Source: a virus. From it: 63,583 nt of DNA. Below the pieces are notes generated by a model that did not search any database, was not told the origin of the DNA, and was given only the letters and a program-made list of their open reading frames with translations. Below are positions 10,981 through 38,810 of this stretch, piece after piece. How positions within the stretch are numbered: the first letter of the stretch is position 1; every line of letters starts with the position of its first letter. Location: the IMG/VR virus record IMGVR_UViG_3300036760_000302, positions 1-63,583 of that record; one strand, written 5' to 3'. Position numbers and translations under genes: made by a program.

Positions 10981-10994
10981 TATAAAAAAAAGCC

Positions 10995-11611: not shown

Positions 11612-11615
11612 CGAT

Positions 11616-11767: not shown

Positions 11768-11989
11768 ATGGAACTAAAATTGAAAACGGACATAGGGGAG
11801 CTCACGGCAGTATTACTGAGCGACACCATTGACGGTGGCAGTAAAACGGTCTGGACAGCTTGGATAAAGGAATATGCCGGAGCGGTAACTCAAGCTGACA
11901 GCATACAAGGGGCAATGGATAAGTTGCCGGAGATTTTGGACTTACTATTGAAAGTAGAAGCAGAACACTTAATAAACGGTAAAGATTAA
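11768..11989 (+). CDS. HicB-like domain protein, 73 aa
   Basis: The sequence WTAWIKEYAGAVTQADSIQGAMDKLPEILDLLL resembles the HicB/UPF0150 fold of antitoxins (GA.TQGE...A...l.ea). No HicA toxin is seen beside it. It may be an orphan antitoxin or regulator. A similar protein is at 17815. Confidence 0.5.
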   Translation: MELKLKTDIGELTAVLLSDTIDGGSKTVWTAWIKEYAGAVTQADSIQGAMDKLPEILDLLLKVEAEHLINGKD

Positions 11990-12000
11990 AAAAAACGACA

Positions 12001-12090
12001 ATGGAAATCATCGAAGTAGATATTGAAGGTAAGAAACGGGGCGATAAAATTCGACCTCGTAACTCAACTGGTAGAGTACCGCTCTTTTAA
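12001..12090 (+). CDS. 29-codon ORF ending in the tRNA-Lys anticodon loop
   Basis: MEIIEVDIEGKKRGDK... starts 11 nt after the HicB-like gene and terminates at the TAA of the loop CTTTTAA in tRNA-Lys. Possibly a short translated leader; low certainty. Confidence 0.25.
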   Translation: MEIIEVDIEGKKRGDKIRPRNSTGRVPLF

Positions 12091-12125
12091 AGCGGGAGTT
12101 GTGCGTTCAAATCGCATCGGGGTCA
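12053..12125 (+). tRNA. tRNA-Lys(TTT)
   Basis: Acceptor GACCTCG/CGGGGTC, anticodon stem CCGCT/AGCGG with loop CTTTTAA. Confidence 0.94.
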
Positions 12126-12135
12126 CAAACTATTA

Positions 12136-12209
12136 GGGTTTGTAGCTCAACTGCTTAGAGCATCGCACTCTTAATGCGAGGGTTGTGGGTTGGAATCCCA
12201 CCAGACCCA
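12136..12209 (+). tRNA. tRNA-Lys(CTT)
   Basis: Acceptor GGGTTTG/CAGACCC, anticodon stem TCGCA/TGCGA with loop CTCTTAA; T-loop TTGGAAT. Confidence 0.93.
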
Positions 12210-12259
12210 CTAATAAATAAAATCAATAATTGAGTTGAACCTATGCTTATTAAAATTAG

Positions 12260-12267
12260 TATATTTA
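12260..12267 (+). promoter_or_regulatory. -7 box before HNH gene
   Basis: TATATTTA, near-consensus TAnnTTTG, 16 nt before the ATG at 12283. Confidence 0.45.
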
Positions 12268-12282
12268 CTTAAAATATACTAA

Positions 12283-12942
12283 ATGGGAAAGCCAAGAAAT
12301 ATTAAAGATGAAATAATAAGACTGTATTCGTCTGGAAAATTTTATAATGAAATAGCGAAAGAACTAAAGTGCTCTAAGGGTACGGTTAGTTATCACTGTG
12401 CTGAAATAAGAATAGAAAAGGGGCTCGATAAGAACGGGCAATGGAATAATGCTGACCCTGAAAAATACATAAAGGCGTGGCAGTTATGTAGGCAAAAGAT
12501 TGTAAATCATTATGTGAAAAAATTACTATCAGAGCCATATAAAAATTTAAGTTTTGAAAGGCTTAGGAAGAGAGTGATTTATGAGCAGAAGGAAAAGTGT
12601 AATCGCTGTAAGTTGTCGGAATGGCTCGGCATGAAGATAATGCTTGAATTAGAGCATAAAGACGGAGATAGGCATAATAATAAACGAAAAAATGTGGAAG
12701 GATTATGTCCAAATTGTCATAGTCAAACAAGTACATGGAGAGGGAAGAATAAGAGGAATAAAAGAGATTTAGTATCTGACGAGAAATTGATAATTTCATT
12801 AGTTAAGCATGGTTTTAATTTTAGAAGAGCTCTAATCGAAGTAGGTCTTGCTCCTAAAGGTGGTAACTATAAGAGATGCCATAAAATAAGTAGAGCACTA
12901 AGGGGTGGTCAGAATAAATCATCGAGCACTAAAAGTTTTTAA
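12283..12942 (+). CDS. HTH-HNH homing endonuclease
   Basis: A 219-aa protein. The N-terminal HTH (KDEIIRLYSSGKFYNEIAKELKC, then SKGTVSYHC) matches the repeats of the 8571 enzyme. The nuclease core is CNRCKLSEWLG...LELEHKDGDRHNNKRKNVEGLCPNCHSQT, a classic H-N-H with two CxxC pairs. It follows two tRNA-Lys genes and has its own promoter box. Confidence 0.88.
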   Translation: MGKPRNIKDEIIRLYSSGKFYNEIAKELKCSKGTVSYHCAEIRIEKGLDKNGQWNNADPEKYIKAWQLCRQKIVNHYVKKLLSEPYKNLSFERLRKRVIYEQKEKCNRCKLSEWLGMKIMLELEHKDGDRHNNKRKNVEGLCPNCHSQTSTWRGKNKRNKRDLVSDEKLIISLVKHGFNFRRALIEVGLAPKGGNYKRCHKISRALRGGQNKSSSTKSF

Positions 12943-12983
12943 CAATCACTGAACGTAAAATAATTTGAAATAGATTTGCAGAA

Positions 12984-13190
12984 ATGTTTGAACTCATGCG
13001 CCATATCAGCTTACCTTTCAATAGGGACAGGAAAATCATTAGTTGTCAATACTGTGGCGGGATGGTTTCTTTCAGGGATAGCCATGCTAACCACGTTCTG
13101 TTCGCCTGCGACAAATGCAAGTCGCCAAAAGAAAAAAATGTAGAACCTAAAAAAGTTTATAACTTTGCCGATAATGATTTCGTATTCTAA
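12984..13190 (+). CDS. small zinc-ribbon protein, 68 aa
   Basis: Two CxxC pairs (CQYCGG and CDKCKS) about 24 residues apart suggest a zinc ribbon. Basic and short; possibly transcription or RNA related. No family recognised. The 118 nt between it and tRNA-Arg show no other gene. Confidence 0.5.
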   Translation: MFELMRHISLPFNRDRKIISCQYCGGMVSFRDSHANHVLFACDKCKSPKEKNVEPKKVYNFADNDFVF

Positions 13191-13308
13191 CCATATCATC
13201 AGCCTCAACGCTTCCTCTTTCCGTGCCCGCATCAGGCGCAGACGGTAATTCCGTCACATATTCCCTTTTGCCTTTCAACTCTTATTTATTTACAGCCTTT
13301 TTAAATCT

Positions 13309-13381
13309 GGGCTTGTAGTTCAACGGATAGAATAGAAGATTTCTAACCTTCTGATGGCGAGTTCGATTCTCCCCAAGCCTA
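13309..13381 (+). tRNA. tRNA-Arg(TCT)
   Basis: Acceptor GGGCTTG/CAAGCCT, anticodon loop TTTCTAA with an A-C mismatch at the loop base. First of four consecutive Arg tRNAs. Confidence 0.88.
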
Positions 13382-13392
13382 CCAGTGTATTT

Positions 13393-13465
13393 GCCCGCAT
13401 AGTTTAATAGGACAGAACCTCTCATTCCTAACGAGAAAATCTCAGTTCGATTCTGGGTGTGGGTG
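13393..13465 (+). tRNA. tRNA-Arg(CCT)
   Basis: Acceptor GCCCGCA/TGTGGGT with wobble pairs, anticodon loop TTCCTAA. Confidence 0.87.
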
Positions 13466-13470
13466 CAAAT

Positions 13471-13543
13471 GGGTTCGTAGTTTAACAGGATAGAATATAT
13501 CACTACGGATGATATGATGGGGATTCGACTTCCCCCGAACCCA
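13471..13543 (+). tRNA. tRNA-Arg(ACG)
   Basis: Acceptor GGGTTCG/CGAACCC, anticodon stem TATCA/TGATA with loop CTACGGA. A34 would need host TadA to make inosine. Confidence 0.92.
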
Positions 13544-13547
13544 CAAC

Positions 13548-13620
13548 GCCTTTGTAGTTTAATTGGATAGAATATCAGATTTCGGCTCTGATGGTGGAGA
13601 TTCGAGTTCTCCCGAAGGCA
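13548..13620 (+). tRNA. tRNA-Arg(TCG)
   Basis: Acceptor GCCTTTG/CGAAGGC, anticodon stem TCAGA/TCTGA with loop TTTCGGC. Confidence 0.92.
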
Positions 13621-13627
13621 CAAAAAA

Positions 13628-13659
13628 AAATCCCGAAACAAATTAATGCTTCGGGATTT
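13628..13659. terminator. bidirectional terminator between tRNA-Arg and lipoprotein gene
   Basis: AAATCCCGAA / TTCGGGATTT, 10-bp stem flanked by A- and T-rich tracts, placed between convergent units. Confidence 0.75.
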
Positions 13660-13675
13660 ATAATTATTATTGTTT

Positions 13676-14431
13676 TTATTTCAGTATTTGAAAACTTCCT
13701 TTATAAGAAACACGAATAATACCTCCACCGCTACCGATAGCATTACGCTGGACGGTGCAAATAGGATACTTTTGTTTGTCTTTATCATTTTTTCCGCACG
13801 GAGGATTTACGCTTGACGTGCAATCGTCACATCCGAATGGGAATACACCTATTTGCCCGCTATTATTACGGATACCTTTGTTCCAGATAGAATCTACCTT
13901 CGGGTACATAGAACTCGCATTCCAATCTTCTCCTCCTAAAAATTTACCGGAGATTATACAGTTAGCTCCATCTACGCAAGATATTTCAACTGTCTCTTGT
14001 GGATTTGGATACGGAGCATTGGATATATTCACGATAAACTCAAAGATGTTTATGCCGAATGGGTATCGAGGGATAGCGCAAGTTAGAGCGACTGTATCGA
14101 AAGAAAATTCACCATTGTATCCCATGCTGTCTGGCGCATAGTCAATGGTGGAGTCATGTGGAGCGAGAGTGAAGTATCCTTTGAGTGGAGCGACTGAATC
14201 AGTAATGAACGGAACTTGACCTATGTTTTGCAGGCAACCATTTGTTGCACCGAGAGATAACCATACGACTACCGCCTTGTCGGTTTCGTTTACAACTCTT
14301 ATTCTGGTAGTGGTATCAACGGCTGGCTCGGACTGCTCGTTAATTACGACAGTTTCTTTTACATTAATAGTGTTGTCGCATCCGAAGAGTGCGATGCAGA
14401 GTGCGAATAATAATAGGATTCTGTTTTTCAT
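13676..14431 (-). CDS. lipoprotein, 251 aa
   Basis: MKNRILLLFALCIALFGC is a lipoprotein signal peptide with lipobox LFGC (Cys18). The mature part is predicted beta-rich, with Cys-rich loops (CDDCTSSVNPPCG) and a Val/Thr-rich N-terminal strand. It is the only minus-strand gene in the tRNA region and sits next to a minus-strand tRNA-like sequence. Probably a host-surface protein expressed by the phage (superinfection exclusion or lysis role possible), but this is a guess. Confidence 0.7.
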   Translation of the reverse strand: MKNRILLLFALCIALFGCDNTINVKETVVINEQSEPAVDTTTRIRVVNETDKAVVVWLSLGATNGCLQNIGQVPFITDSVAPLKGYFTLAPHDSTIDYAPDSMGYNGEFSFDTVALTCAIPRYPFGINIFEFIVNISNAPYPNPQETVEISCVDGANCIISGKFLGGEDWNASSMYPKVDSIWNKGIRNNSGQIGVFPFGCDDCTSSVNPPCGKNDKDKQKYPICTVQRNAIGSGGGIIRVSYKGSFQILK

Positions 14432-14468
14432 TTTGATTGGTTTGTTTTATTTGGGTTTATGGGGTTAG

Positions 14469-14538
14469 TAGTCACGATGGGGGTTGAACCCACTAAGACA
14501 GGGTTAGAATCCCATCCCTCCTCCACCGGAGCATGACT
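14469..14538 (-). tRNA. tRNA-like sequence, anticodon TCT (Arg?), minus strand
   Basis: On the minus strand AGTCATG/CGTGACT forms a 7-bp acceptor, GTGGG-TTCAACC-CCCAT a T-arm, and GGG-ATTCTAA-CCC a short anticodon arm. The D-arm collapses to a 3-nt-loop hairpin. It is the only tRNA-like element on this strand and is likely a decayed or atypical tRNA. Confidence 0.5.
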
Positions 14539-14605
14539 ATTTCCGGCAAAGATAATCAATATTTGGATTAACAAATTTTAACATTGCCGTATTAAAGAAT
14601 ATTCC

Positions 14606-14613
14606 TATATTTA
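14606..14613 (+). promoter_or_regulatory. -7 box before pth2-like gene
   Basis: TATATTTA, 24 nt before ATG 14637. Confidence 0.45.
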
Positions 14614-14636
14614 CTTAACGAACAACAAATACTACC

Positions 14637-15047
14637 ATGAAATAGATTTCCAACACCGACAAGTTAACGATAGTCACCAGACGTGACATCACCGCAGGAT
14701 ACCAAGCCTGCCAGTCCGCACACGCTATTGCGGAGTTCATTTTCAAATACCCATTCCTTTCTTATCTCTGGCACAAACGCTCAAATTATGTAGCGTTACT
14801 TTCCGTTCAGGGAGAACCAGCACTCATGTACCTTATAAGTAAGCTCGAAGCTGAAAATATAAAGCACGTTGCATTTAAAGAGCCGGACATCGGCAATCAG
14901 ATTACAGCCGTTTGCATCGAACCATCGGATAAGGCGCGAGCTATTTGTGCCGGAATGCCGTTGGCATTAAAAGAATTTCGCTCCGAGAATAAAATCAACA
15001 AGACGACCTATAAATCATTAACCTCAGAATACCAACTCATTACATGA
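14637..15047 (+). CDS. peptidyl-tRNA hydrolase Pth2-like, with amber codon at position 3
   Basis: From ATG 14637 the frame reads Met-Lys-TAG and then stays open for ~133 codons. The protein (KLTIVTRRDITAGYQACQSAHAIAEF..., FKEPDIGNQITAVCIEP, ALKEF) follows the archaeal/eukaryal-type Pth2 fold, which hydrolyses peptidyl-tRNA to recycle tRNA. Either translation starts at ATT 14646, the TAG is read through, or the ATG-AAA-TAG is a separate mini-ORF. The same ATGAAATAGATT string recurs at the gene's 3' end (15045). The job fits the surrounding tRNA and tmRNA genes. Confidence 0.65.
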
Positions 15048-15056
15048 AATAGATTA
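15045..15056 (+). repeat. second copy of ATGAAATAGATT
   Basis: 12 nt identical to 14637-14648, overlapping the Pth2 stop codon (TGA within ATGAAA). It again forms a Met-Lys-stop mini-ORF. Confidence 0.7.
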
Positions 15057-15145
15057 TAGGAAATATCAGAGAACCGCCTTAAAGTTCATGGGCGGAATAG
15101 AAATTTAATGAATTAGCAGTAATAATATTTTAAACTTTAAAAACA

Positions 15146-15577
15146 ATGAACACAATGAAAAATGAAAATCGCGCAGAGCTTCTCGAAGCGAACAGCGCAA
15201 ATGTTGAAGTAACATTCAATAAAATCCGAGAGTATGCAAACGCCAACGGATACATCATCATGAACGCCTTGAAAGTTCCAACGAATTTGATAGGCTTAAA
15301 CAAATCTCTTCACTTCGACAGCAAGAAGAAGAAAAAGGTTCTCAGGAATTACATCAATCGCCTTAATAAGCGTATGAGTCATTCCGGTGCGAACTGCTTT
15401 CTTCATTTTCTTTTTAAGACCATCTACAAAATGGATACTGCTCCAAGTGTAGAGTTTTCTGAAAAAGAAATAAAGATTCGTTCTGCTCGTAAGGCTTGGG
15501 TGAAAGCTCGTACAGAGGCAGAGAAACTCCGAGTCCTGTACCGGACGGAAAAGGGTGATTTTTATAAGAAGAAATAA
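15146..15577 (+). CDS. hypothetical protein, 143 aa
   Basis: A highly basic, helical protein (FDSKKKKKVLRNYINRLNKRM, ARKAWVKARTEAEKLRVLYRTEKGDF). No signal peptide. Its composition and setting between the Pth2-like gene and stable RNAs would suit an RNA-binding protein, but no family is recognised. Confidence 0.6.
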   Translation: MNTMKNENRAELLEANSANVEVTFNKIREYANANGYIIMNALKVPTNLIGLNKSLHFDSKKKKKVLRNYINRLNKRMSHSGANCFLHFLFKTIYKMDTAPSVEFSEKEIKIRSARKAWVKARTEAEKLRVLYRTEKGDFYKKK

Positions 15578-15580
15578 TCC

Positions 15581-15588
15581 TATCTTTA
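15581..15588 (+). promoter_or_regulatory. -7 box of small RNA
   Basis: TATCTTTA, near-consensus, just before the terminator-ended segment 15593-15673. Confidence 0.45.
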
Positions 15589-15592
15589 CAGT

Positions 15593-15673
15593 CTCATCTC
15601 CCAGTCCGAAGTACAAGGACGTTAGTGGAGAAGGAGCTCGAAAGACGCTAACCCATGATGGTTGGCGTTTTTT
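15593..15673 (+). ncRNA. ~80-nt small RNA with own promoter and terminator
   Basis: The segment contains GTCC-GAAGTACAA-GGAC, an alternative pairing GTTAG/CTAAC, and a terminator (15646-15673). It has no ORF. Because GTTAG (15621) competes for CTAAC of the terminator stem, it could also be a regulatory leader of the following RNA. Confidence 0.45.
15646..15673 (+). terminator. terminator
   Basis: CGCTAACC / GGTTGGCG, 8 bp with one G-T, loop CATGAT, then TTTTTT. Confidence 0.75.
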
Positions 15674-15689
15674 GGTTTAAGGAAATTAC

Positions 15690-15697
15690 TATCTTTG
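15690..15697 (+). promoter_or_regulatory. promoter of tmRNA transcript
   Basis: TATCTTTG exact consensus; TTG at 15672 lies 15 nt before it. Start expected near 15704. Confidence 0.6.
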
Positions 15698-16147
15698 CAT
15701 CAGGATTTCATTTTAAGTTCTTTGCTTATTGAGTTGTATTGACAATTTGTTTGGACGAGGGTTCGTAGCCCTCCGCCTCCACCAAATTTTAGTTAGGTAA
15801 CGCTATCGGTGTATGGGGCATCTCAAGGAACACATCTAACGTCAGGTGATGATACCGTAATTTGGCGGTTGTAACTTCTTGGACTGTCTTTGCGGGAAGC
15901 TAAACATACTTCCTGATAGTTCTCAACTGACAAGATAAAAAGATGTTTCGGTAACGAAATGTTCAACACTATCCATTGATGGTGCTTGTAGGCGGGAATA
16001 ACTGACTAATATTTTATTTTTACCTCCATCAACCATGCGTTGATGAATTACGGGAGCGTTCAGTTTTACTCTGGGCGCTTCTTGCTTTTGGGGGCGAATG
16101 TTTTGACAGCGAAGATGTCGGTATGATTTTCCGGTCAATAGACTGGA

Positions 16148-16201
16148 GCGAAATCTCAACGTCTAAATGACGAAAAAATAGAGTACCGTCTGGTCGCTTA
16201 G
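16148..16201 (+). other. putative tmRNA tag reading frame
   Basis: Seventeen codons plus TAG ending NDEKIEYRLVA. The NDE core and the hydrophobic C-terminal LVA resemble known SsrA tags (NDENYALAA/LVA type). The resume codon is uncertain; a later in-frame start would shorten the tag. Confidence 0.5.
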
Positions 16202-16223
16202 AGCGATGCAGGCAAACAGTTAA

Positions 16224-16256
16224 AAACCTCTCAGCGAAAGCTCAGGGGTTTTTCTG
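16224..16256 (+). terminator. terminator of tmRNA transcript
   Basis: AACCTC...GGGGTT with inner AGC-GAAA-GCT hairpin, then TTTTTCTGTTTTT. Confidence 0.75.
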
Positions 16257-16266
16257 TTTTTATAAC

Positions 16267-16274
16267 TATCTTTA
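16267..16274 (+). promoter_or_regulatory. -7 box before lipoprotein gene
   Basis: TATCTTTA only 4 nt before ATG 16279, so the mRNA would be nearly leaderless if this box is used. Confidence 0.35.
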
Positions 16275-16278
16275 CAAA

Positions 16279-17103
16279 ATGAAAAAATATTTCATAGTAA
16301 CGATATTGCTAATTCTGATTATAGTTTCATGCGGACTGTTCAGGAGTAAGTCATCCCATTACGGAGAAGGCTCTGGATACGGCTCTGGCGGAAATTCGCA
16401 TACGGATTCTACTACCGTTAACTTTGATTCTTTATTAGGCAATGATGATATTTTCGAGAGCTTAGAGCCAGAACCTCATAAAGTAGTAATAACCTCTGGC
16501 GAGGGTTGGTATCCAAAACCTCCGAATCCTAATTTGAAAATAGTTAAGATTGAAAATACGCGGGTCATAAATAAATCCGTTGATATGTCCGATGGAAGGG
16601 TCGTGTATAAAATTCCTGAGCGAATGAAGATTCGCGAGACCAGCAAAGTCCTGCTTAGAATCTCCAAGTCTAAAGCAACGGTGAGCGTGTATGATAATCT
16701 GGACGGCACAGTTCGGACATCAGAAATTCCGGTGACGCAGACGATGGAAGTAAATCTTATTGACCCATCCCCAGCCGACAATAAATCATTTGAGATAGTG
16801 CCGGACAATAACGCGGTGCAGATAGTTGATGACGGGGAGACCTACACTGAATGGTCATGGAATGTCACTCCGGTTCGGGCTGGGAGCTCCAGCTTGAAGA
16901 TTGTAGTATCGGTAATCCGCGATGGGAATAAAAAAGACGTAGTGTATGAGGACTCGGTAGTGATTGAAAGAGACCTCCAGAATCAAATATCCTTCTTCTG
17001 GGGCAAATACTGGCAGTGGCTCATAGGAACATTCCTCCTGCCGTTTTTCTTGTGGCTGTATAAGCGAAAAAAGGATAAAAAAGAAGAAGAGAGAAATAAT
17101 TGA
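16279..17103 (+). CDS. lipoprotein with C-terminal membrane anchor, 274 aa
   Basis: MKKYFIVTILLILIIVSC is a lipoprotein signal (lipobox IVSC, Cys18), followed by a Gly/Ser linker, a beta-rich domain (about 80-230, with alternating hydrophobic strands) and a C-terminal transmembrane helix (WQWLIGTFLLPFFLWLY) with a very basic tail. Two membrane attachments suggest an envelope-spanning protein, for example exclusion or lysis control. No family recognised. Confidence 0.65.
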   Translation: MKKYFIVTILLILIIVSCGLFRSKSSHYGEGSGYGSGGNSHTDSTTVNFDSLLGNDDIFESLEPEPHKVVITSGEGWYPKPPNPNLKIVKIENTRVINKSVDMSDGRVVYKIPERMKIRETSKVLLRISKSKATVSVYDNLDGTVRTSEIPVTQTMEVNLIDPSPADNKSFEIVPDNNAVQIVDDGETYTEWSWNVTPVRAGSSSLKIVVSVIRDGNKKDVVYEDSVVIERDLQNQISFFWGKYWQWLIGTFLLPFFLWLYKRKKDKKEEERNN

Positions 17104-17112
17104 AAATAATTT

Positions 17113-17142
17113 GCTCGCGTATTAAATTAATTCCTATATTTG
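17113..17142 (+). promoter_or_regulatory. promoter of leader RNA 2
   Basis: TTG near 17111 and TATATTTG at 17135-17142 with ~21 nt between. Confidence 0.6.
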
Positions 17143-17179
17143 CCTCGTGAGGCGCAAATCTCACTATGAAAAACAGAAA

Positions 17180-17272
17180 ATGAAAAATTTATCACTATAT
17201 AGTCTATCGTTGCTCCAACAGCATCCGCAGGGATACTCAGGGCTTCATTGCTATATGGTGATTGAAAAATAA
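17180..17272 (+). CDS. 30-aa leader ORF of RNA 2
   Basis: MKNLSLYSLSLLQQHPQGY... ends 22 nt before the terminator. It contains the alternative pairing partner of the terminator stem. Probably a regulatory leader peptide. Confidence 0.35.
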   Translation: MKNLSLYSLSLLQQHPQGYSGLHCYMVIEK

Positions 17273-17293
17273 AACTTCCAACACCAAGCAGAG

Positions 17294-17327
17294 AACCCTG
17301 AGCAAGAAATTGTTTGGGGTTTTTTGT
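17294..17327 (+). terminator. terminator of leader RNA 2
   Basis: AACCC...GGGGTT stem, then TTTTTTGTTTTT. Confidence 0.7.
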
Positions 17328-17349
17328 TTTTATGTGGTCGGTTGTAATT

Positions 17350-17423
17350 CGGGGTGTAGCGCAGTCCGGTAGCGCATCTGTTTTGGGAACAGAGGGTCGT
17401 AGGTTCAAATCCTGCCACTCCGA
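17350..17423 (+). tRNA. tRNA-Pro(TGG)
   Basis: Acceptor CGGGGTG/CACTCCG, anticodon stem TCTGT/ACAGA with loop TTTGGGA. Confidence 0.94.
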
Positions 17424-17430
17424 CAAATAT

Positions 17431-17505
17431 GGTGTTGTTAGTTCAGTCGGTTAGAACGCTTGATTGTGGTTCAAGAGGTCGCCAGTTCAAATCTGGTACA
17501 ACACC
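17431..17505 (+). tRNA. tRNA-His(GTG)
   Basis: GGTGTTGT/ACAACACC gives the 8-bp acceptor with G-1 opposite C73 that identifies histidine tRNAs; loop TTGTGGT. Confidence 0.95.
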
Positions 17506-17525
17506 CAGCTAAAATAAATGACAAA

Positions 17526-17723
17526 ATGAAAATAGATATAAGTTATATCAGCACTAAGTATTACGACAGGACAAACATTGTTCAATGGATGTTCATGTTT
17601 AAAAGATACACGGCTGTAAGGGGATTTATCATGAGGGTATTTGGAATTTATTTTAATGTGAGAGAAAATAATGCGACAGAAAAATTGATAAAATTATTTA
17701 TAGAATCACGGAAGTGTGGGTGA
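17526..17723 (+). CDS. hypothetical protein, 65 aa, overlapping tRNA-Ser
   Basis: Start chosen at ATG 17526 after tRNA-His (the open frame runs back through it). Basic, hydrophobic core (WMFMFKRYTAVRGFIMRVFGIYF). The last 14 nt lie in tRNA-Ser(GCT). No family recognised. Confidence 0.45.
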   Translation: MKIDISYISTKYYDRTNIVQWMFMFKRYTAVRGFIMRVFGIYFNVRENNATEKLIKLFIESRKCG

Positions 17724-17800
17724 GTGGCTGAAACCACTCGTTTGCTAAACGAGCAATCGGCTGAATAGTCGGTTCGAGAGTTCAAATCTCTCCGCTTCCG
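17710..17800 (+). tRNA. tRNA-Ser(GCT)
   Basis: Class II; acceptor GGAAGTG/CGCTTCC, loop TTGCTAA, long variable arm. Confidence 0.95.
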
Positions 17801-17814
17801 CAAATAAAAAAAAG

Positions 17815-18045
17815 ATGAACATAGTTCTTAAAATAAAAGTAGAAGGTTACACCGCTATAATGGTGGAGGATAAAGAGGAAGGTTTGTTTACGATGTCCTG
17901 CTTGGAAAAAGGTGGAGCAATCATAACCGGAAATACGAAGGAGGAATGTCTGGAGAAATTCAAGAAGGCGATGGGGCTGGCGGTCGCGGTAGCAAAGCTG
18001 GCTGAGTTTGGAAGAAGTAGAACATTTAACTACAAAAGAAAATGA
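17815..18045 (+). CDS. HicB-like protein, 76 aa
   Basis: The pattern TMSCLEKGGAIITGNTKEECLEKFKKAMGLA resembles the HicB/UPF0150 fold (G..t.G.T.eEa...f). It overlaps the next gene by 4 nt (ATGA), so the two are coupled. No HicA toxin nearby; a regulatory or RNA-related use is possible. Confidence 0.5.
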   Translation: MNIVLKIKVEGYTAIMVEDKEEGLFTMSCLEKGGAIITGNTKEECLEKFKKAMGLAVAVAKLAEFGRSRTFNYKRK

Positions 18046-18245
18046 ACACGGAAATTGAGGACATGATAATTGATAAATGGGCTGAGGATGTAATCAGCTC
18101 GGACTCGGAGCGAGTTATTGAATACAAGAATGGTAATGAAGGATTACTCGGATACTTTGTCGGAATGACGATGAAAAAATCGAGAGGTCAGTTGGATGTG
18201 AGTAAATTAAATAAGGCGATAAAAGAAAAACTCAATAAAATATAA
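18042..18245 (+). CDS. stand-alone GatB/YqeY tail-like domain, 67 aa
   Basis: ERVIEYKNGNEGLLGYFVGMTMKKSRGQLDVSKLNKAIKEKL matches the C-terminal helical (QqY) domain of GatB/YqeY proteins (V.dyk.Gk..a.g.lvGqvMk.tkGka....v...lk.kl). In GatB this domain contacts tRNA. Here it is a separate protein within a tRNA array, coupled to a HicB-like gene, so a tRNA-binding role is plausible. Confidence 0.7.
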   Translation: MNTEIEDMIIDKWAEDVISSDSERVIEYKNGNEGLLGYFVGMTMKKSRGQLDVSKLNKAIKEKLNKI

Positions 18246-18254
18246 AAACTGAAA

Positions 18255-18365
18255 ATGGAAGCACCAGAAAAAATAGACGAGGACTCGTTCTCCGGAATAA
18301 CACATACGGAGGCGTGGCAGAGTCAGCTTTATCGCACCAGTCTTGAAAACTGGCAATCACTTTAA
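18255..18365 (+). CDS. 36-codon ORF running into tRNA-Ser(TGA)
   Basis: MEAPEKIDEDSFSGITHTEA... continues through more than half of tRNA-Ser and stops in its variable arm. Low certainty, but it fits the recurring ORF/tRNA overlap. Confidence 0.25.
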   Translation: MEAPEKIDEDSFSGITHTEAWQSQLYRTSLENWQSL

Positions 18366-18402
18366 GCTAAGTGGTTCGGGGGTTGAAATCCCTCCGCCTC
18401 CG
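18308..18402 (+). tRNA. tRNA-Ser(TGA)
   Basis: Class II; acceptor GGAGGCG/CGCCTCC, anticodon stem CCAGT/ACTGG with loop CTTGAAA. Confidence 0.95.
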
Positions 18403-18462
18403 CAAATAAATAAAAACAGGAAGTAAATAAATAAAACAAAATGAAAGACTATTATTATACAT

Positions 18463-18496
18463 AGCGGGGATTGATTGGCAAGTCCACCTTCTCCGC
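18463..18496 (+). ncRNA. mini stem-loop (GCGGGGA/TCTCCGC)
   Basis: A 7-bp acceptor-like stem closing a 20-nt loop, 8 nt before tRNA-Tyr. No T-run. Confidence 0.35.
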
Positions 18497-18504
18497 AACG
18501 CAAT

Positions 18505-18588
18505 GGGAATGCGCCAGAGTTGGAGAGCTGGGTTTGTCTGTAAAACAAATGGCTTCGGTCTAAGTGAGTTCGATTCTCACAATTCCCA
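18505..18588 (+). tRNA. tRNA-Tyr(GTA)
   Basis: Class II with variable arm; anticodon stem TTTGT/ACAAA with loop CTGTAAA; acceptor GGGAAT/ATTCCC plus one mismatch. Confidence 0.93.
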
Positions 18589-18606
18589 CAGATGAAAATA
18601 AAATAT

Positions 18607-18690
18607 GCGAGCGTGGCGGAATCGGCATACGCACTGGTCTAAGAAGCCAGCGTCCGGAAGGAATTAAGAGTTCAACTCTCTTCGCTCGCA
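18607..18690 (+). tRNA. tRNA-Leu(AAG)
   Basis: Class II; acceptor GCGAGCG/CGCTCGC, loop CTAAGAA. Confidence 0.92.
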
Positions 18691-18694
18691 CAAA

Positions 18695-18778
18695 CCGCAA
18701 GTGGTGGAATCGGCAGACACATACGCCTCAGAAGCGTATGCTCGGAAGGGCGTAAGAGTTCAAGTCTCTTCTTGCGGA
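18695..18778 (+). tRNA. tRNA-Leu(CAG)
   Basis: Class II; acceptor CCGCAAG/CTTGCGG, anticodon stem TACGC/GCGTA with loop CTCAGAA. Confidence 0.94.
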
Positions 18779-18792
18779 CGAAAAATATAAAT

Positions 18793-18876
18793 GCGAGTAT
18801 GGCGGAACTGGCAGACGCGATGGACTCAAAACCCATTGGAGTGAAATCCGTAAGAGTTCGATTCTCTTTATTCGCA
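18793..18876 (+). tRNA. tRNA-Leu(CAA)
   Basis: Class II; acceptor GCGAGTA/TATTCGC, loop CTCAAAA. Confidence 0.92.
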
Positions 18877-18892
18877 CGATAAAAAAACTAAA

Positions 18893-18973
18893 ATGAAAAC
18901 AACTGAACGATTATGTGCGAGGGAAATATCCTCGCATGGCGAAATTGGTAAACGCGCTATCCTTAAAAGGTAG
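18893..18973 (+). CDS. 26-codon ORF ending in tRNA-Leu(TAA)
   Basis: MKTTERLCAREISSHGEI... starts between tRNAs and stops at a TAG in the anticodon stem of the next tRNA. Low certainty. Confidence 0.2.
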   Translation: MKTTERLCAREISSHGEIGKRAILKR

Positions 18974-19015
18974 TGGGCAGTAATGCCCGTGTCGGTTCGA
19001 CTCCGATTGCGAGGA
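18930..19015 (+). tRNA. tRNA-Leu(TAA)
   Basis: Class II; acceptor CCTCGCA/TGCGAGG, anticodon stem CTATC/GGTAG with loop CTTAAAA. Confidence 0.94.
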
Positions 19016-19093
19016 CAGTACAAAGTAATACGATGTAATACAAAATAATACAATGAACAATTTAAACCAGCAACAGCAAGAATAAACAACGAA

Positions 19094-19151
19094 GGGGAGA
19101 ACCATCGTAAGGAGGGGTCTTGCCCTTCCGGTGATGAATATATTCTCCTCT
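19094..19151 (+). ncRNA. nested hairpin before tRNA-Gln
   Basis: GGGGAGAA pairs with TTCTCCTC, which is also the tRNA-Gln acceptor strand; inside are CCATCG/GGTGATG and GGAGGG/CCTTCC. If it folds, it would compete with the tRNA 5' end, so it could be a processing switch. Confidence 0.35.
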
Positions 19152-19214
19152 CGTCTAACGGTAGGACATCTGATTTTGGCTCAGAGAATTGCAGTTCAAA
19201 TCTGTGGGGGAGAA
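19144..19214 (+). tRNA. tRNA-Gln(TTG) copy 1
   Basis: Acceptor TCTCCTC/GGGGAGA, anticodon stem TCTGA/TCAGA with loop TTTTGGC. Confidence 0.92.
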
Positions 19215-19229
19215 CAATAGAAAAATAAT

Positions 19230-19237
19230 TATCTTTG
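19230..19237 (+). promoter_or_regulatory. -7 box between the tRNA-Gln genes
   Basis: TATCTTTG exact consensus, 15 nt before tRNA-Gln copy 2. Confidence 0.5.
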
Positions 19238-19251
19238 CGGATATTTCTTAT

Positions 19252-19324
19252 TGACCTATGGTGTAATTGGCAACACGACTGATTTTGGTTCAGTAGAGTC
19301 TAAGTTCGAGCCTTAGTGGGTCAA
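19252..19324 (+). tRNA. tRNA-Gln(TTG) copy 2
   Basis: Acceptor TGACCTA/TGGGTCA, anticodon stem ACTGA/TCAGT with loop TTTTGGT; clearly different from copy 1 outside the anticodon. Confidence 0.93.
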
Positions 19325-19362
19325 CAAGCTGGATGCTGTTAATAAGTTTTGTAAGATTGTAC

Positions 19363-31322: not shown

Positions 31323-33260
31323 TTAGAAATCGTCCTCTATGCTATTGGTTTTTGGTTCGCCTGTATTTTGGTGTGATGATGATGGTTGTGGACTGCTTTG
31401 GTCTGGTTGATTGTTAAATAATGAGTACGAGGGCTCTACGAATTTAGATAAGTGAGGAATGAACATTAGGTTTTCTATTCCAATTCTTCCGTTACGATGC
31501 TTTGCGATTACTATTTCTGCCAAGCCCTGAGTAGAGTTTCCGTTCTCGTCCTCCAGTATGCCATAATACTCCGGTCTGTGGATAAATGCAACAAGGTCGG
31601 CATCTTGCTCTATCTGACCGGATTCGCGCAGGTCTGATAGTTGGGGTCTTTTAGCAGTTCCACCTCTTTGCTCAAGCATACGGCTTAACTGTGACAGTGC
31701 TATGATTGGAATATTTAGTTCTTTAGCAATCGCCTTGAGCGACCTTGAAATCAATCCAACCTCTTGCTCTCTATTCCCTTTTCCTTCTCCGCCAACCATT
31801 AGTTGCAGGTAGTCAATGACAATCATTGAAATATCATGCTGAGACTTCAATCTCTTCGCTTTTGCCTTGAACTCAAACAGCGATAAGGATGGGGTGTCAT
31901 CAATAAATAGCGGAGAGTGCGCGAGTTCAGTTATTTTTTCATTTAAAAACTGAAATTCTTCTGTACTGACCTGACCCTGCCTTAATTTCTCGCTGGAGAA
32001 CTCAGTCTCAGATGCAATTAATCTCATTACTAATTGCAGGGATGTCATTTCGAGACTAAATATTGCGACTGGTTTTTTAAATCTTACCGATGCGTTTCTG
32101 GCAAGAGCCATCATAAGGGCGGTATTATGAACCACCGTACAATCTTCAAGTAAGAATAATCTATTTCCGTCTAAGGTAAATCCATAATATATATCAACTA
32201 TATCTTGCTCAACACTAATTGGTGTTAATGCCTGCACTTCAATATCGCGTATATCAACCCTGTATCCCTTGTAATTATTTTTCCATTCGGATGATTTTTT
32301 CAAATACTCCCTAACTTCAATATTCGCTACATCTCCAGAATTGTTTTTTAAGGACAATATGTGGCTTTCATTAACCCTATAATCTATCCCGTGAAGTTGC
32401 TTCACATTATACATCATTTCCCTGCCAGATGTCGTAGATAGAACATTTCGAGGAGTAGAGTCATTGCCCATTAGTACGTCTCCTGTTTTTATATCCTCTA
32501 CATTTTTAATACAGCCATCGTACATCATTATTCTTGTTCCCTTCCCAAAACATTTTCCCATTGCCGGACGTGCCCCAAGAATAATCAAGTCTGAGTTCTG
32601 CCAGCCTCCGGTAATTGCATCGAGCCTTGTGAATCCAGATGGGATACCTTGAAATGTCTGGTCTCTGGAATCTTCTATTTGCTTTATGGCTTTTCCGAGA
32701 AGGGACTGAATGGTCTCGTAGTTCTTTCGGATGTTATCCTGACTTACGGAGAATAACTCATTCTCAGATTTTTCCATCAACTCAAATACGTCTGTTGAGT
32801 CCTCGTAAGAATTTTGAAGGATGTTAGTGCAAACTCTTATGAGTTCTCTTTGTAAAAATTTTTCTATTATTATTCGTGCATGAACTTCTACGTTTGCTGA
32901 TGATGCGATTCTATTTGTAAGCTGGGTGACGTAAAATGCTCCTCCTGCATTTTCGAGATTACCTTCTTTTTTTAATCTTTGAGTGACAGTTAAAATGTCA
33001 ATAGCGTCCGAATCGTTGAATAGGGATTGAATAGCGGTGTATATTAATATATGCGCTTCTTTGTAGAAGGTAGCTGGCTTTAAGATGTCAATTACATTGG
33101 CAAGTGCGCCTTTGTCCAGCATGATAGCGCCCAGCACAGCTTCTTCTAAGTCAACTGCGGATGGTGGTAGCTTGCCGAGTCCTATTAATTGCTGTGGAGT
33201 GATAGAGATTTTATTTCTCTTCCTTTTATCCCTAATATCTTTATTGTTGCCAGATTCCAT
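31323..33260 (-). CDS. dnaB: replicative DNA helicase DnaB with mini-intein
   Basis: 645 aa including an intein. N-domain (PPSAVDLEEAVLGAIMLDKG) and RecA-type C-domain (SGFTRLDAITGGW, Walker A GARPAMGK-T split by the intein, VIDYLQLM Walker B, SQLSRMLEQRGG, DLRESGQIEQDADLV) are complete. After splicing it would be ~502 aa, near the usual size. It unwinds the replication fork. An HNH endonuclease gene lies 6 nt upstream and a GIY-YIG gene 2 nt downstream. Confidence 0.96.
   Translation of the reverse strand: MESGNNKDIRDKRKRNKISITPQQLIGLGKLPPSAVDLEEAVLGAIMLDKGALANVIDILKPATFYKEAHILIYTAIQSLFNDSDAIDILTVTQRLKKEGNLENAGGAFYVTQLTNRIASSANVEVHARIIIEKFLQRELIRVCTNILQNSYEDSTDVFELMEKSENELFSVSQDNIRKNYETIQSLLGKAIKQIEDSRDQTFQGIPSGFTRLDAITGGWQNSDLIILGARPAMGKCFGKGTRIMMYDGCIKNVEDIKTGDVLMGNDSTPRNVLSTTSGREMMYNVKQLHGIDYRVNESHILSLKNNSGDVANIEVREYLKKSSEWKNNYKGYRVDIRDIEVQALTPISVEQDIVDIYYGFTLDGNRLFLLEDCTVVHNTALMMALARNASVRFKKPVAIFSLEMTSLQLVMRLIASETEFSSEKLRQGQVSTEEFQFLNEKITELAHSPLFIDDTPSLSLFEFKAKAKRLKSQHDISMIVIDYLQLMVGGEGKGNREQEVGLISRSLKAIAKELNIPIIALSQLSRMLEQRGGTAKRPQLSDLRESGQIEQDADLVAFIHRPEYYGILEDENGNSTQGLAEIVIAKHRNGRIGIENLMFIPHLSKFVEPSYSLFNNQPDQSSPQPSSSHQNTGEPKTNSIEDDF
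32124..32552 (-). mobile_element. mini-intein in the DnaB Walker A motif, 143 aa
   Basis: Inserted after GARPAMGK. It starts CFGKGTRIMMYDG (Cys1, block A), has a block-B-like DYRVNESHILSL, block F EQDIVDIYYGFTLDGN and ends VVHN before Thr+1. No homing endonuclease domain is present. The P-loop is a classic intein site in helicases. Splicing is needed to make active DnaB. Confidence 0.93.
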
Positions 33261-36064: not shown

Positions 36065-37167
36065 CAGTCAATTTTTGGATTATTGAAAAATTCCATCATT
36101 CCACCTCTTTTTTTGCCCGCACCGAATTTACTGCTACTCATCATGATGCTTGAATTTTCATCATCAATCATAATTGCTCGTTGGATGTATTCCGGTAGCG
36201 TAGTTCCTTTTGGCAGGAATTTATAATGACTTCTGATTGCACACTTCTTGTACATATCTGTTTTCCATTCGGTATAGAAATAGTCGCTCTCGCCTCCGGT
36301 ACTCATTTGTTCTATTTTCGCGAGCTTCCATATCTCCATGAAGTGATAATGCTTTGTTCCGTCATTCAGTATGGCGACAGAATAAGCTCCGGCAATTTGG
36401 CGTGCATTATTTTCAGCTTCGGTCTTAGCAACTTTTGGCTTATGGGTAATTTTATTCTCGGCTGGAAGATACTCGAACTCATAGTCATCTTCATAAACTA
36501 TATGAGCGTCCATAACTTTTATACTACCGCTATCTGTCAAGGACTTGATTAATCCGCGATAGGTGAGCTCGAATACGCATTTGCCGTCTTTGGCTTTAAG
36601 GTATGCAAGTTTTAAAGCTGGATTAATTGTGCTCTTGGTTCTGCCTATGTCAATGATTGCGGAAACTATCGAGTCTTGATGACAATTTTTGAGAGTTGGA
36701 TTTTCGTGGAAGATGGAATAAACGTATGACATCTCGGTGTCAGCTTGACTCTCAGCCATTCCTTCGACTACCAGTATTTGCCTTGCCTTCTCTACTTGGT
36801 TCTGCCAGTGAGGTGTAGAGCCGGAAATGGTAGTGGATTCGTTAGGCTCTAATACAATAGGTGATGATGAGATTATTTTAATGGGCTTGTCGCTATTATT
36901 TTTTATGTCGAATCGTTGTCCTGCTGATGATGCGTGAGGTAATGCAACCGTAGTCTGAGTCTCGGATTCCTTTTTTAATTTCCAAATCATTGTGTTGATA
37001 GAACCCTCAGACCTATTAAGCTGGGACGATAGCCAATCTACTGGCTTATTTATATTGTGCTGGATGAAATCAATCTCATCCTGCTTCCACCGCTTGTTGT
37101 GAGATTTTCCTGTAAAACCTGTTAGATTTAGTTGAGAGGTATAAGGCATTATTTTTTTCTGTTTCAT
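36064..37167 (-). CDS. recT: RecT-family single-strand annealing protein (portion of fusion or internal start)
   Basis: ESQADTEMSYVYSIFHENPTLKNC, CVFELTYRGLIKSLTDSG and RQIAGAYSVAILNDGTKHYHFME are RecT core blocks. It anneals complementary ssDNA, working with the SSB and the RecB-like nuclease at 40320. ATG 37167 (MKQKKIMPYTSQ) would give a 367-aa protein with an extra N-terminal SANT-like domain not typical of RecT. Confidence 0.85.
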   Translation of the reverse strand: MKQKKIMPYTSQLNLTGFTGKSHNKRWKQDEIDFIQHNINKPVDWLSSQLNRSEGSINTMIWKLKKESETQTTVALPHASSAGQRFDIKNNSDKPIKIISSSPIVLEPNESTTISGSTPHWQNQVEKARQILVVEGMAESQADTEMSYVYSIFHENPTLKNCHQDSIVSAIIDIGRTKSTINPALKLAYLKAKDGKCVFELTYRGLIKSLTDSGSIKVMDAHIVYEDDYEFEYLPAENKITHKPKVAKTEAENNARQIAGAYSVAILNDGTKHYHFMEIWKLAKIEQMSTGGESDYFYTEWKTDMYKKCAIRSHYKFLPKGTTLPEYIQRAIMIDDENSSIMMSSSKFGAGKKRGGMMEFFNNPKID

Positions 37168-38571
37168 TTTTTTTAGTTGTAAAAAAAATCCACCAAAGTG
37201 ATACATTTTTTCGACACTTTTTATAGAATAAACCTTTTTTGAATCTTCAATTTTAACTCGTGTGCCTTTGTCTTGCATCCCGCCAACTGAAAATATTTTT
37301 CCGTTAATCCAAATCAAATCTTTTGGCTGAATAGCATATCGTTGCTTTCGGATTGAAGGCGAAAATCCTTTTCTGTTTAATTGAATCGCCCTGTTATTTC
37401 TATGCTTTTGTTGAATTGTAATTGACCCGTATCGCTCTTGTGTTGCTCCGCCAGCAATAACAAACGCATCAGTGGCGTGGGATTTTTCTAATCCCAGTTT
37501 TTGTCTTTCAACGAAAGTTTTGTATCCAAAGGTGATATTTACATCTGGAATATCTTGTTTGAATTTATGTTGGATGATGGACATAAATGTATTTGCTTTA
37601 TACTCTTTTGGAGTAAATAATTTTAATCCATTATTATGCAATTTCTTGTGACACTTCTTATGAATTATCGCCAAGTTTTCTGAACGGTCAGAGCCCTGTT
37701 CGTGACGCTCTTTGCAGTGATGAATATGCGATGGATTTCCTTTTGTAAATTCTTTGTGGCACAACTGGCATAAACCATGTTCTCGCGCCATCAGATATGC
37801 TCTCATATTTTGGTAGCCATACAAATCTCCTTGCTGATAACCAATGCCATTAATGTCTGGATTTATAATTTTAGCGATGTCAAAATTGCCAGTTTCGATT
37901 GTGACTTTTGAAATTGGCAGAATTGATTTTGCATTCTTGATTAGCGTCAAATGAGCGTCATATCTCCTTTGAATTGATGGTGGAAGCCAACCTTCTTTTT
38001 GATTCCCTCGATTCAAAAATCTTGATTTTCGATACCATAATTTGTTTCTCTTTAACCTGCGATACATTCTTCTTTCGGTCAGCCTACTTGATGTTTTGCT
38101 GTCAAGCGTAATTGTTTGAGACAATACTTCTTTCGTTGAGGTAATGGCTGACATTCCAACATTGTTAAATCCGGAATCAACTCCAAGTCTGATTTCTTGC
38201 GCCTGATTCTCGCACTCAAAATTTAATTTAATAGTGAATGGATACAATTTAATAACCTTAGCGCGATTACCGTTAAGTAATTTTTTCGCTTTTGCTGGAG
38301 TGCATGGCATTAAAGTGCGTCCTTCAATACTAATTACATACACAATGGCTTTAAGCCTCTCTGTATGTTGAGATAAATCCACTTCGGGATTGTTAAAACA
38401 GGTTTTTGAGCCTGACACACTAAGAGTTTCCTCTTTGTTTAATGACAGACCACAGTTGCTACGGACTTGTGGAGCATCCGTAGGTGTGTTCTTTTTAGTT
38501 CTCTGTTTTAACTTCTGCTTCATTGTTTCCAATTTACGCTCCCTAATCAACCTGTTACCCTTAAACCTCAC
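36064..38571 (-). CDS. IscB RNA-guided nuclease fused in frame to RecT recombinase, 835 aa
   Basis: IscB part: PLMP-type domain (EGRTLMPCTPAKAKKLL), RuvC-I LGVDSG (Asp132), arginine-rich bridge (about 165-205), RuvC-II VTIETGNFD (Glu226), HNH with CQLC and IHHC...KKCHKKLH, RuvC-III SHATDAF (Asp368) and a C-terminal target-interaction domain (IWINGKIFSVGG). The frame then reads FFLQLKK-M469 into RecT: a SANT/Myb-like helix trio (about 493-535), a linker and the RecT core (595-800). The IscB start is probably GTG 38343, with omega-RNA before it. RecT could start alone at ATG 37167 or 37149. T8 and A8 tracts at the junction make a sequencing indel possible. Confidence 0.85.
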   Translation of the reverse strand: MRFKGNRLIRERKLETMKQKLKQRTKKNTPTDAPQVRSNCGLSLNKEETLSVSGSKTCFNNPEVDLSQHTERLKAIVYVISIEGRTLMPCTPAKAKKLLNGNRAKVIKLYPFTIKLNFECENQAQEIRLGVDSGFNNVGMSAITSTKEVLSQTITLDSKTSSRLTERRMYRRLKRNKLWYRKSRFLNRGNQKEGWLPPSIQRRYDAHLTLIKNAKSILPISKVTIETGNFDIAKIINPDINGIGYQQGDLYGYQNMRAYLMAREHGLCQLCHKEFTKGNPSHIHHCKERHEQGSDRSENLAIIHKKCHKKLHNNGLKLFTPKEYKANTFMSIIQHKFKQDIPDVNITFGYKTFVERQKLGLEKSHATDAFVIAGGATQERYGSITIQQKHRNNRAIQLNRKGFSPSIRKQRYAIQPKDLIWINGKIFSVGGMQDKGTRVKIEDSKKVYSIKSVEKMYHFGGFFLQLKKMKQKKIMPYTSQLNLTGFTGKSHNKRWKQDEIDFIQHNINKPVDWLSSQLNRSEGSINTMIWKLKKESETQTTVALPHASSAGQRFDIKNNSDKPIKIISSSPIVLEPNESTTISGSTPHWQNQVEKARQILVVEGMAESQADTEMSYVYSIFHENPTLKNCHQDSIVSAIIDIGRTKSTINPALKLAYLKAKDGKCVFELTYRGLIKSLTDSGSIKVMDAHIVYEDDYEFEYLPAENKITHKPKVAKTEAENNARQIAGAYSVAILNDGTKHYHFMEIWKLAKIEQMSTGGESDYFYTEWKTDMYKKCAIRSHYKFLPKGTTLPEYIQRAIMIDDENSSIMMSSSKFGAGKKRGGMMEFFNNPKID

Positions 38572-38760
38572 GGCTCAAGCCCTTTCTTTTGGATTGGGTG
38601 ATTGACTCCTTTGCTCCATTTTTAATCAAATCCTTTTTTTTAATCCGTATCTCAATAAAAGAGTAGGCAAGTAGCGACACCAATTCCTTCACACCGATGG
38701 CTGTCGGAAGGTGGAACGATGCCACTACCGCCTACAAGACGTTAGGAGTATCCTAAATAA
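38345..38760 (-). ncRNA. probable omega-RNA (HEARO-type) region upstream of iscB
   Basis: Read on the minus strand, the region before the IscB GTG holds a long imperfect stem around 38655-38745 (a GTAGGC...GCCTAC closing pair), a hairpin CTACGGA/TCCGTAG near 38470 and CAGG/CCTG near 38400. IscB systems encode their guide RNA directly upstream of the gene with the guide at its 5' end. The region overlaps the extended N-terminal frame, which is thus probably untranslated. Exact ends are unknown. Confidence 0.5.
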
Positions 38761-38810
38761 ATTTTGTTGTTGTTTGCCATCGGTATTCAGTGAATCAGAA
38801 TGCAATTATA

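What the first reader, a model, noticed from the sequence alone, without database searches (positions are those of the whole stretch)
38345..38760. Probable omega-RNA/HEARO upstream of the phage IscB
The 5' 76 codons of the IscB frame do not look like protein, and the DNA carries strong minus-strand hairpins directly before the expected GTG start. This is where IscB guide RNAs lie. The guide should be at the RNA 5' end, near or beyond 38750.
Basis: partly seen in the sequence, partly recalled or inferred. Interest (0 to 1): 0.7.

Follow-up and report, generated by a model that had tools for sequence, protein, structure and literature searches.

The report
Phage IscB guide RNA inside recT
A bacterial virus carries a compact RNA-guided DNA-cutting system whose guide RNA spells out the gene start into which the system has inserted itself, so it can probably cut empty copies of that site and copy itself in; in this viral lineage the guide RNA also overlaps the start of the nuclease gene.

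Summary
Rfam HEARO (RF02033) matches full length at 38606-38373 (-), 109.4 bits against a cut-off of 83. Relatives in 24 other phage IscB loci show overwhelming base-pair covariation (34 of 42 pairs; score 0.663, shuffled 0.226). The nuclease is an intact IscB. Two details need correcting. First, the guide is not near 38750: conservation starts abruptly at 38606, so the guide is the flank just 5' of it, 38622-38607 (AAAATGGAGCAAAGGA), which overlaps a start codon. The 38663-38735 hairpin is not part of the family RNA. An empty site found for a clade member (L107 versus L212) shows that the element begins at HEARO position 1 and ends in the last IscB codons. Second, the upstream frame is not merely non-protein: in the viral clade it is kept open through the RNA (0 stops in 18 sequences; 73 and 65 in the other frames; spacings multiples of three), although amino acids are unselected. 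IscB translation therefore probably starts inside the omega-RNA. The window element sits in codon 5 of an HTH-recT gene, and the IscB frame runs into RecT. That fusion hangs on one T of a T8 run. Best reading: an RNA-guided homing element; a variant of a known kind.

The parts
38373..38606 (-). HEARO / omega-RNA scaffold (Rfam RF02033, model 1-211 complete)
   Evidence: cmscan 109.4 bits, GA 83; covariation with 24 relatives
38607..38622 (-). predicted 16-nt guide AAAATGGAGCAAAGGA (up to 38630 if a 24-nt guide is used)
   Evidence: immediately 5' of HEARO position 1, where conservation stops; empty-site comparison in a clade member puts the element end at HEARO position 1; 5' spacer of HEARO RNAs is the guide (PMC9755519)
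38617..38619 (-). ATG, probable original start codon of the interrupted HTH-recT gene (M-E-Q-R, then the element)
   Evidence: translation; joined flanks are in frame with RecT (coordinates); inference
38521..38523 (-). ATG inside the omega-RNA, probable IscB start codon in this clade
   Evidence: in-frame ATG at -57 to -61 codons in 21 of 23 loci, frame open
38341..38343 (-). GTG at the conserved IscB core start (alternative start codon)
   Evidence: position; IscB family match starts at residue 77
37180..38523 (-). IscB: RRXRR/PLMP region, RuvC I-III, HNH, C-terminal domain; catalytic D57, E151, H209, H210, D293 (core numbering) all present
   Evidence: NCBIfam guided_IscB 286 bits, PDB IscB alignments, invariant in 23 loci
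37181..37188 (-). T8 run; with T7 the IscB frame would stop at TAA 37175-37173 like its relatives, with T8 it runs on into RecT
   Evidence: forms a perfect inverted repeat with the following A8
37178..37179 (-). probable right end of the element (between 37179 and 37178; alternative: after TAA 37173)
   Evidence: homology with the right end of the L107 element defined by empty site L212; inference
37165..37167 (-). ATG, possible re-start codon of the HTH-RecT part
   Evidence: phage starts lack Shine-Dalgarno motifs
36958..37128 (-). helix-turn-helix-like segment between IscB and RecT
   Evidence: phrog_323, E = 1e-4 for this segment and 3e-5 for the longer piece 36880-37179
36199..36720 (-). 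RecT ssDNA-annealing domain (PF03837, phrog_148); the gene ends at 36064
38663..38735 (-). large hairpin upstream of the element; not part of the HEARO family; probably a feature of the recT leader
   Evidence: fold; no conservation in other IscB loci; unique in the window

Best explanation
The region is the omega-RNA (HEARO RNA) of a phage IscB, and RNA plus nuclease form a compact RNA-guided homing element. SHOWN: the RNA fold, the intact IscB directly downstream, the exact 5' boundary at 38606, absence of a Y1 TnpA transposase, membership of a virus-only clade with a different insertion site in each phage, and, for one member, an empty site matching the flank used as guide. INFERRED: the transcript from 38622 (or further 5') to 38373 is bound by IscB; its first 16-24 nt, copied from the DNA that flanked the insertion, direct IscB to uninterrupted copies of the HTH-recT gene (guide AAAATGGAGCAAAGGA over the start codon, with a target-adjacent motif in the right flank). 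IscB breaks the empty allele of a co-infecting phage and recombination copies the element in. The filled allele is safe because HEARO sequence replaces the adjacent motif. The element splits recT after codon 4; the IscB frame continues into recT, so RecT is made as an IscB fusion or by restarting at ATG 37167. In this clade IscB is probably translated from an ATG inside its own omega-RNA, so one transcript serves as guide RNA or as mRNA.
For: HEARO hit over the gathering score. Covariation: 34/42 pairs with two-sided changes, 246 cells against 69 in shuffles, score 0.663 against 0.226 shuffled and 0.07-0.13 for slid helices; RNAalifold alone finds 30/32 covarying pairs. HEARO at or over the gathering score upstream of IscB in 29 of 32 viral loci scanned. 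Sharp 5' boundary. Empty site: L212 reads ...AAAAATATTCCAGTTGAACTGGATGT|GGAGGA... where L107 reads ...GAACTGGACGT|[1425-nt element starting with HEARO position 1]|GGAGGA.... IscB catalytic residues invariant in 23 loci. No TnpA in the window or in the clade's records apart from one broken fragment. Viral-only clade of 25 rows (100/98) with L088+L089 as sister (98/91). Frame kept open in the RNA. Literature: the 5' spacer of HEARO RNAs is the reprogrammable guide, and over 16% of HEARO-encoding fragments look viral (PMC9755519).
Against: No transcript or cleavage data. No empty allele of the window's own site was found: no recT relative in viral contigs by close search, and the 24 exact guide matches there lie in loci without a recT or IscB match and are about what chance gives. 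The homing step is inferred from one clade member (L107/L212), itself a long branch and one of the exceptions to the open-frame rule. The target-adjacent motif of this IscB is unknown. Some clade members keep a right-end hairpin like an IS200/IS605 end, so transposition in trans is possible. The overlap of ORF and RNA rests on comparative frame statistics, without proteomics.
Confidence: 0.78

Rival explanations
1. The omega-RNA is longer and starts upstream of the 38663-38735 hairpin, so the guide lies near or beyond 38750.
For: The hairpin is strong (z -5.1) and lies close upstream on the same strand.
Against: No conservation upstream of 38606 in 21 loci; 5' flanks do not align; the empty site of L107 puts the element end at HEARO position 1; a guide at 38750 would not spell the insertion junction.
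Confidence: 0.04
2. IscB and RecT really are one polypeptide: an RNA-guided nuclease tethered through an HTH to a ssDNA-annealing protein, which would couple cutting to homologous copying.
For: One open frame 38571-36064 without stops; joined flanks keep recT in frame; in L107 the IscB stop is supplied by flanking DNA, so run-on into the target gene is built into such elements; T8 and A8 form a perfect inverted repeat, as expected if T8 is correct.
Against: With one T fewer IscB would end FGGFFYN-stop, exactly where close relatives stop; all other clade members examined stop near there; homopolymer length in a metagenome contig is not verified; RecT could restart at ATG 37167.
Confidence: 0.3
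3. A non-autonomous IS200/IS605-type passenger mobilised by TnpA in trans; omega-RNA and IscB only help to retain it (peel-and-paste with donor-joint cleavage).
For: Some clade members have right-end hairpins resembling the hairpin at the 5' end of HEARO; C. difficile phage relatives have tnpA next to iscB (L007; L117 record).
Against: No TnpA in the window or in the clade's records except a broken fragment; no right-end hairpin in the window or in L107; contig ends and hosts are unseen, so trans supply cannot be excluded.
Confidence: 0.15
4. A decayed relic: RNA and nuclease no longer work.
For: The first apical hairpin of HEARO is weak in the window; the frame at the IscB end differs from relatives.
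Against: All catalytic and zinc-binding residues are intact, there is no stop in IscB, and the core RNA helices are intact.
Confidence: 0.07
5. An ordinary protein-coding 5' end with no functional RNA.
For: The frame is open for 76 codons and conserved as a frame.
Against: HEARO hit, massive covariation and neutral synonymous ratio.
Confidence: 0.01

Closest known systems
HEARO RNA / omega-RNA of IscB (Rfam RF02033)
   Same: Full-length model match above the gathering score, same helices, immediately 5' of an IscB gene, guide expected directly 5' of position 1.
   Different: In this viral clade (and in six archaeal, chlamydial and other relatives) the iscB reading frame is kept open through the RNA from an ATG inside it; canonical HEARO loci have stops there and an ATG at the core (MVYV).
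OgeuIscB and other characterised IscB nucleases
   Same: RRXRR/PLMP, split RuvC with inserted HNH, all catalytic residues, TAM-side C-terminal domain.
   Different: N-terminal extension encoded within the omega-RNA; no solved IscB aligns with it; in the window the C-terminal end runs into HTH-RecT.
IS200/IS605-family iscB elements with TnpA (e.g. Clostridioides phage pCD1602_4, L007)
   Same: HEARO plus iscB in the same order; flank-derived guide.
   Different: No tnpA and, in the window, no recognisable right-end hairpin.
Phage homing endonucleases (HNH, GIY-YIG) and homing introns or inteins
   Same: Inserted in or next to conserved phage genes, cut the empty allele, self-protected when filled.
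   Different: Specificity is given by RNA taken from the insertion site, not by protein.
TnpB with reRNA overlapping the 3' end of its ORF
   Same: Guide RNA nested in the nuclease ORF.
   Different: Here it is the 5' end of an IscB ORF and the guide is at the RNA 5' end.

Membership tests
HEARO / omega-RNA (RF02033) | covariance-model score over the curated gathering score | tested here: met
   109.4 bits against 83, model 1-211 complete
HEARO / omega-RNA (RF02033) | conserved base-paired structure supported by covariation | tested here: met
HEARO / omega-RNA (RF02033) | lies directly upstream of an IscB gene on the same strand | tested here: met
   same in 29 of 32 viral loci scanned
HEARO / omega-RNA (RF02033) | guide at the 5' end, taken from DNA flanking the insertion | tested here: inconclusive
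   boundary at position 1; met for clade member L107 by empty site L212; no empty site for the window itself
HEARO / omega-RNA (RF02033) | RNA expressed and bound by IscB | not testable with these tools
   no transcript data
IscB nuclease | RRXRR/PLMP, RuvC I-III and HNH with catalytic residues | tested here: met
IscB nuclease | RNA-guided DNA cleavage next to a target-adjacent motif | not testable with these tools
   needs biochemistry
IS200/IS605 transposon | Y1 TnpA transposase | tested here: not met
   no PF01797 match in the record; none over the cut-off in the 21 clade records searched, only a broken fragment in G016
IS200/IS605 transposon | right-end hairpin | tested here: not met
   only the A8/T8 repeat near the right end, no hairpin resembling those of L088, L090, L094 or L100
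homing endonuclease element | target is the uninterrupted insertion site | tested here: inconclusive
   shown for L107/L212 only
RecT fusion | single open frame from IscB to RecT | tested here: inconclusive
   open as given, but depends on the T8 run

The most novel reading that the evidence does not exclude
In this viral lineage the omega-RNA is nested inside the iscB coding sequence (start codon within the RNA, frame conserved, peptide unconstrained), so guide RNA and mRNA are alternative uses of one transcript. In the window phage the nuclease is in addition fused in frame to the RecT annealing protein whose gene it targets, giving a self-spreading RNA-guided nuclease-recombinase.
Probability: 0.25. 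Interest if true: 0.85.

Novelty: new variant of a known kind. Interest (0 to 1): 0.6.

Why it matters
It turns a suspected omega-RNA into a defined guide with a predicted target (the start of an HTH-recT gene) and gives, for this clade, a filled/empty pair that fixes both element ends. That makes RNA-guided homing between phages directly testable. The conserved open frame through the omega-RNA suggests that translation and guide-RNA folding compete on the same transcript, a possible way to tune nuclease dose. A nuclease reading into RecT would be a natural template for coupling cutting to recombination.

Tried and rejected
Close relatives of the RecT, the IscB or the HTH piece in viral contigs by single-sequence patterns: none. 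DNA similarity to known phages: none. Empty site of the window through its guide: 24 exact 16-mer matches in viral contigs, about chance, none in a locus with a RecT or IscB match. Empty site of L091 through its left flank: only itself. Similarity between left and right flanks of the element as a target duplication: not significant, 103 of 1000 shuffles as good. Shine-Dalgarno argument for locating the recT start: dropped, because the phage shows no Shine-Dalgarno usage (9 of 65 genes, background 0.16). True conserved N-terminal protein domain: rejected by the neutral synonymous ratio, while frame conservation was kept. The upstream hairpin as part of the guide RNA: rejected. Searches in open literature for phage IscB homing, IscB-RecT and ORF-overlapping omega-RNA found nothing on point; the library lacks most subscription papers.

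Full report
OBSERVATION. The window is a 63,583-base virus record. On its minus strand an 835-aa frame (38571-36064) contains IscB (NCBIfam guided_IscB, 286 bits, cut-off 175, residues 77-373; Pfam RRXRR 180 bits and HNH) followed by RecT (PF03837 60 bits; phrog_148). Rfam HEARO matches 38606-38373 over its whole length with 109.4 bits (cut-off 83). The stretch 38346-38780 folds better than all 100 shuffles (z -4.2).

RELATIVES. A two-sequence IscB alignment found 37 viral loci with up to 64% identity and 61 loci in bacterial and archaeal genomes. HEARO at or over the gathering score lies directly upstream of IscB in 29 of the 32 viral loci scanned. In a tree of 77 sequences the window groups with L088 and L089 (98/91) inside a clade of 25 rows that are all viral (100/98). 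Sampling is pattern-based, so 'viral-only' holds for what was fetched. None of the clade records searched has a TnpA over the cut-off, and only one has a broken fragment. The C. difficile phage relatives, which lie outside the clade, do have tnpA (record of L117).

THE RNA IS REAL. On an alignment of 25 loci (A4) RNAalifold predicts 32 pairs, 30 of them with compensatory changes. For 42 named pairs, 92.8% of cells pair, 34 pairs show changes on both sides, and the covariation score is 0.663 against 0.226 in shuffles and at most 0.13 when the helices are slid by 1-3 columns.

THE GUIDE. Anchored at HEARO position 1, conservation is high from +1 and absent over the 40 bases upstream in 21 loci. 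The strong hairpin at 38735-38663 (z -5.1) is unique in the window, has no counterpart in other loci and does not belong to the RNA family. The guide is thus 38622-38607, AAAATGGAGCAAAGGA, extendable to 38630; published HEARO enzymes use the 5' spacer as guide, and MG35-1 prefers 24 bp (PMC9755519). A scan for the left flank of the clade member L107 found L212, a related phage (83% identical flank) without the element...CCAGTTGAACTGGATGT|GGAGGA... against ...CCAGTTGAACTGGACGT|[1425 nt]|GGAGGA.... The element starts exactly at HEARO position 1 (one base ambiguous) and ends within the last IscB codons, the IscB stop being supplied by flanking DNA. This is direct comparative evidence that the guide is the left flank of the insertion site and that GGAGGA in the right flank occupies the place of the target-adjacent motif.

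THE WINDOW SITE. Left of the element stands ATG GAG CAA AGG A (38619-38607; MEQR). By homology with L107 the right end lies after TTTTTTTTAC (37179), followed by AACTAAAAAAAATGAAACAG. Joining the flanks reads ATG GAG CAA AGG AAA CTA AAA AAA ATG AAA CAG AAA AAA ATA ATG CCT ..., in frame with the HTH-like segment (phrog_323, E 3e-5) and RecT. The other plausible end, after TAA 37173, is also in frame. The element therefore most likely interrupts codon 5 of an HTH-recT gene (inference; no empty allele of this site was found). As given, the IscB frame continues into RecT. With one T fewer in the T8 run (37188-37181) IscB would end FGGFFYN-stop, as its relatives do. Whether T8 is true, an assembly slip or a slippage site cannot be settled here. 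The A8/T8 inverted repeat is mild support for T8.

NUCLEASE. The RuvC and HNH residues D57, E151, H209, H210, D293 and three cysteines are invariant in 23 loci and align with those of solved IscBs.

THE FRAME THROUGH THE RNA. In the viral clade the IscB frame has no stop over the 56 codons before the core in 22 of 23 loci, against 101 and 97 stops in the other frames; L107 is the exception. Most members lack an ATG at the core. An in-frame ATG lies 57-61 codons upstream in 21 of 23. The spacings ATG-to-TTAAA (75, 78, 81) and TTAAA-to-core (96 to 120) are multiples of three except in L107, whereas the spacing from the RNA 5' end to the ATG is not (one TTAAA landmark, in L096, was misassigned by the pattern). 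Between ATG and the HEARO end there are 0 stops in 18 sequences against 73 and 65 in the other frames; resampling columns gives 12.3 +- 3.2, 0 of 2000 as low (this null ignores base pairing). Yet synonymous changes are not in excess (0.232 against 0.219 expected; core 0.671). So the frame is selected to stay open but its amino acids are not. The simplest reading is that translation of IscB starts at the ATG inside the omega-RNA (38523 in the window) and the RNA dictates the peptide. Six archaeal, chlamydial and other relatives (L126-L131) show the same open frame, while loci with ATG at the core generally have stops. Solved IscBs do not align with the extension.

MECHANISM. Shown: structured RNA, boundary, intact nuclease, flank-matching empty site in one member. 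Inferred: RNA binding, cleavage of empty alleles, homing by recombination, self-protection by loss of the adjacent motif, and RecT production as fusion or by restart.

CLASSIFICATION. A member of the HEARO/IscB kind. Variant features: no transposase, viral clade, omega-RNA nested in the ORF, and run-on into the target gene. Viral HEARO systems as such are known (over 16% of fragments in PMC9755519), which limits the novelty.

Noticed in passing
window 31323-33260 (-): The DnaB helicase carries an in-frame insert of about 140 aa after GARPAMGK (CFGKGTRIMM...CTVVHNTA) that looks like a mini-intein; a second kind of selfish insert in a replication gene of the same phage.
   Followed up: no
window 6512-19325 (+): 33 tRNA genes interspersed with HNH-type endonuclease and other small ORFs, covering most amino acids.
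   Followed up: no
window 38663-38735 (-): Strong 73-nt hairpin (z -5.1) in the leader before the interrupted recT start; unique in the window and not a known Rfam family; function unknown.
   Followed up: partly
window, all genes: No Shine-Dalgarno usage (9 of 65 genes, at background) and A-rich start regions, pointing to a Bacteroidota-like host (the host is inference).
   Followed up: partly
L114 3654-3734 and L106 113-193: An IscB element inserted inside an HNH gene (left flank encodes RRDGYRCRHCGS), with the IscB frame running through a right-end hairpin: one selfish nuclease interrupting another.
   Followed up: partly
L102 3736-5821: A clade member sits beside a tRNA array in another phage.
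   Followed up: no
window 3474-4421 (+): ORF resembling an IS1595-type transposase near the contig start (by eye from the translation; no family search run).
   Followed up: no
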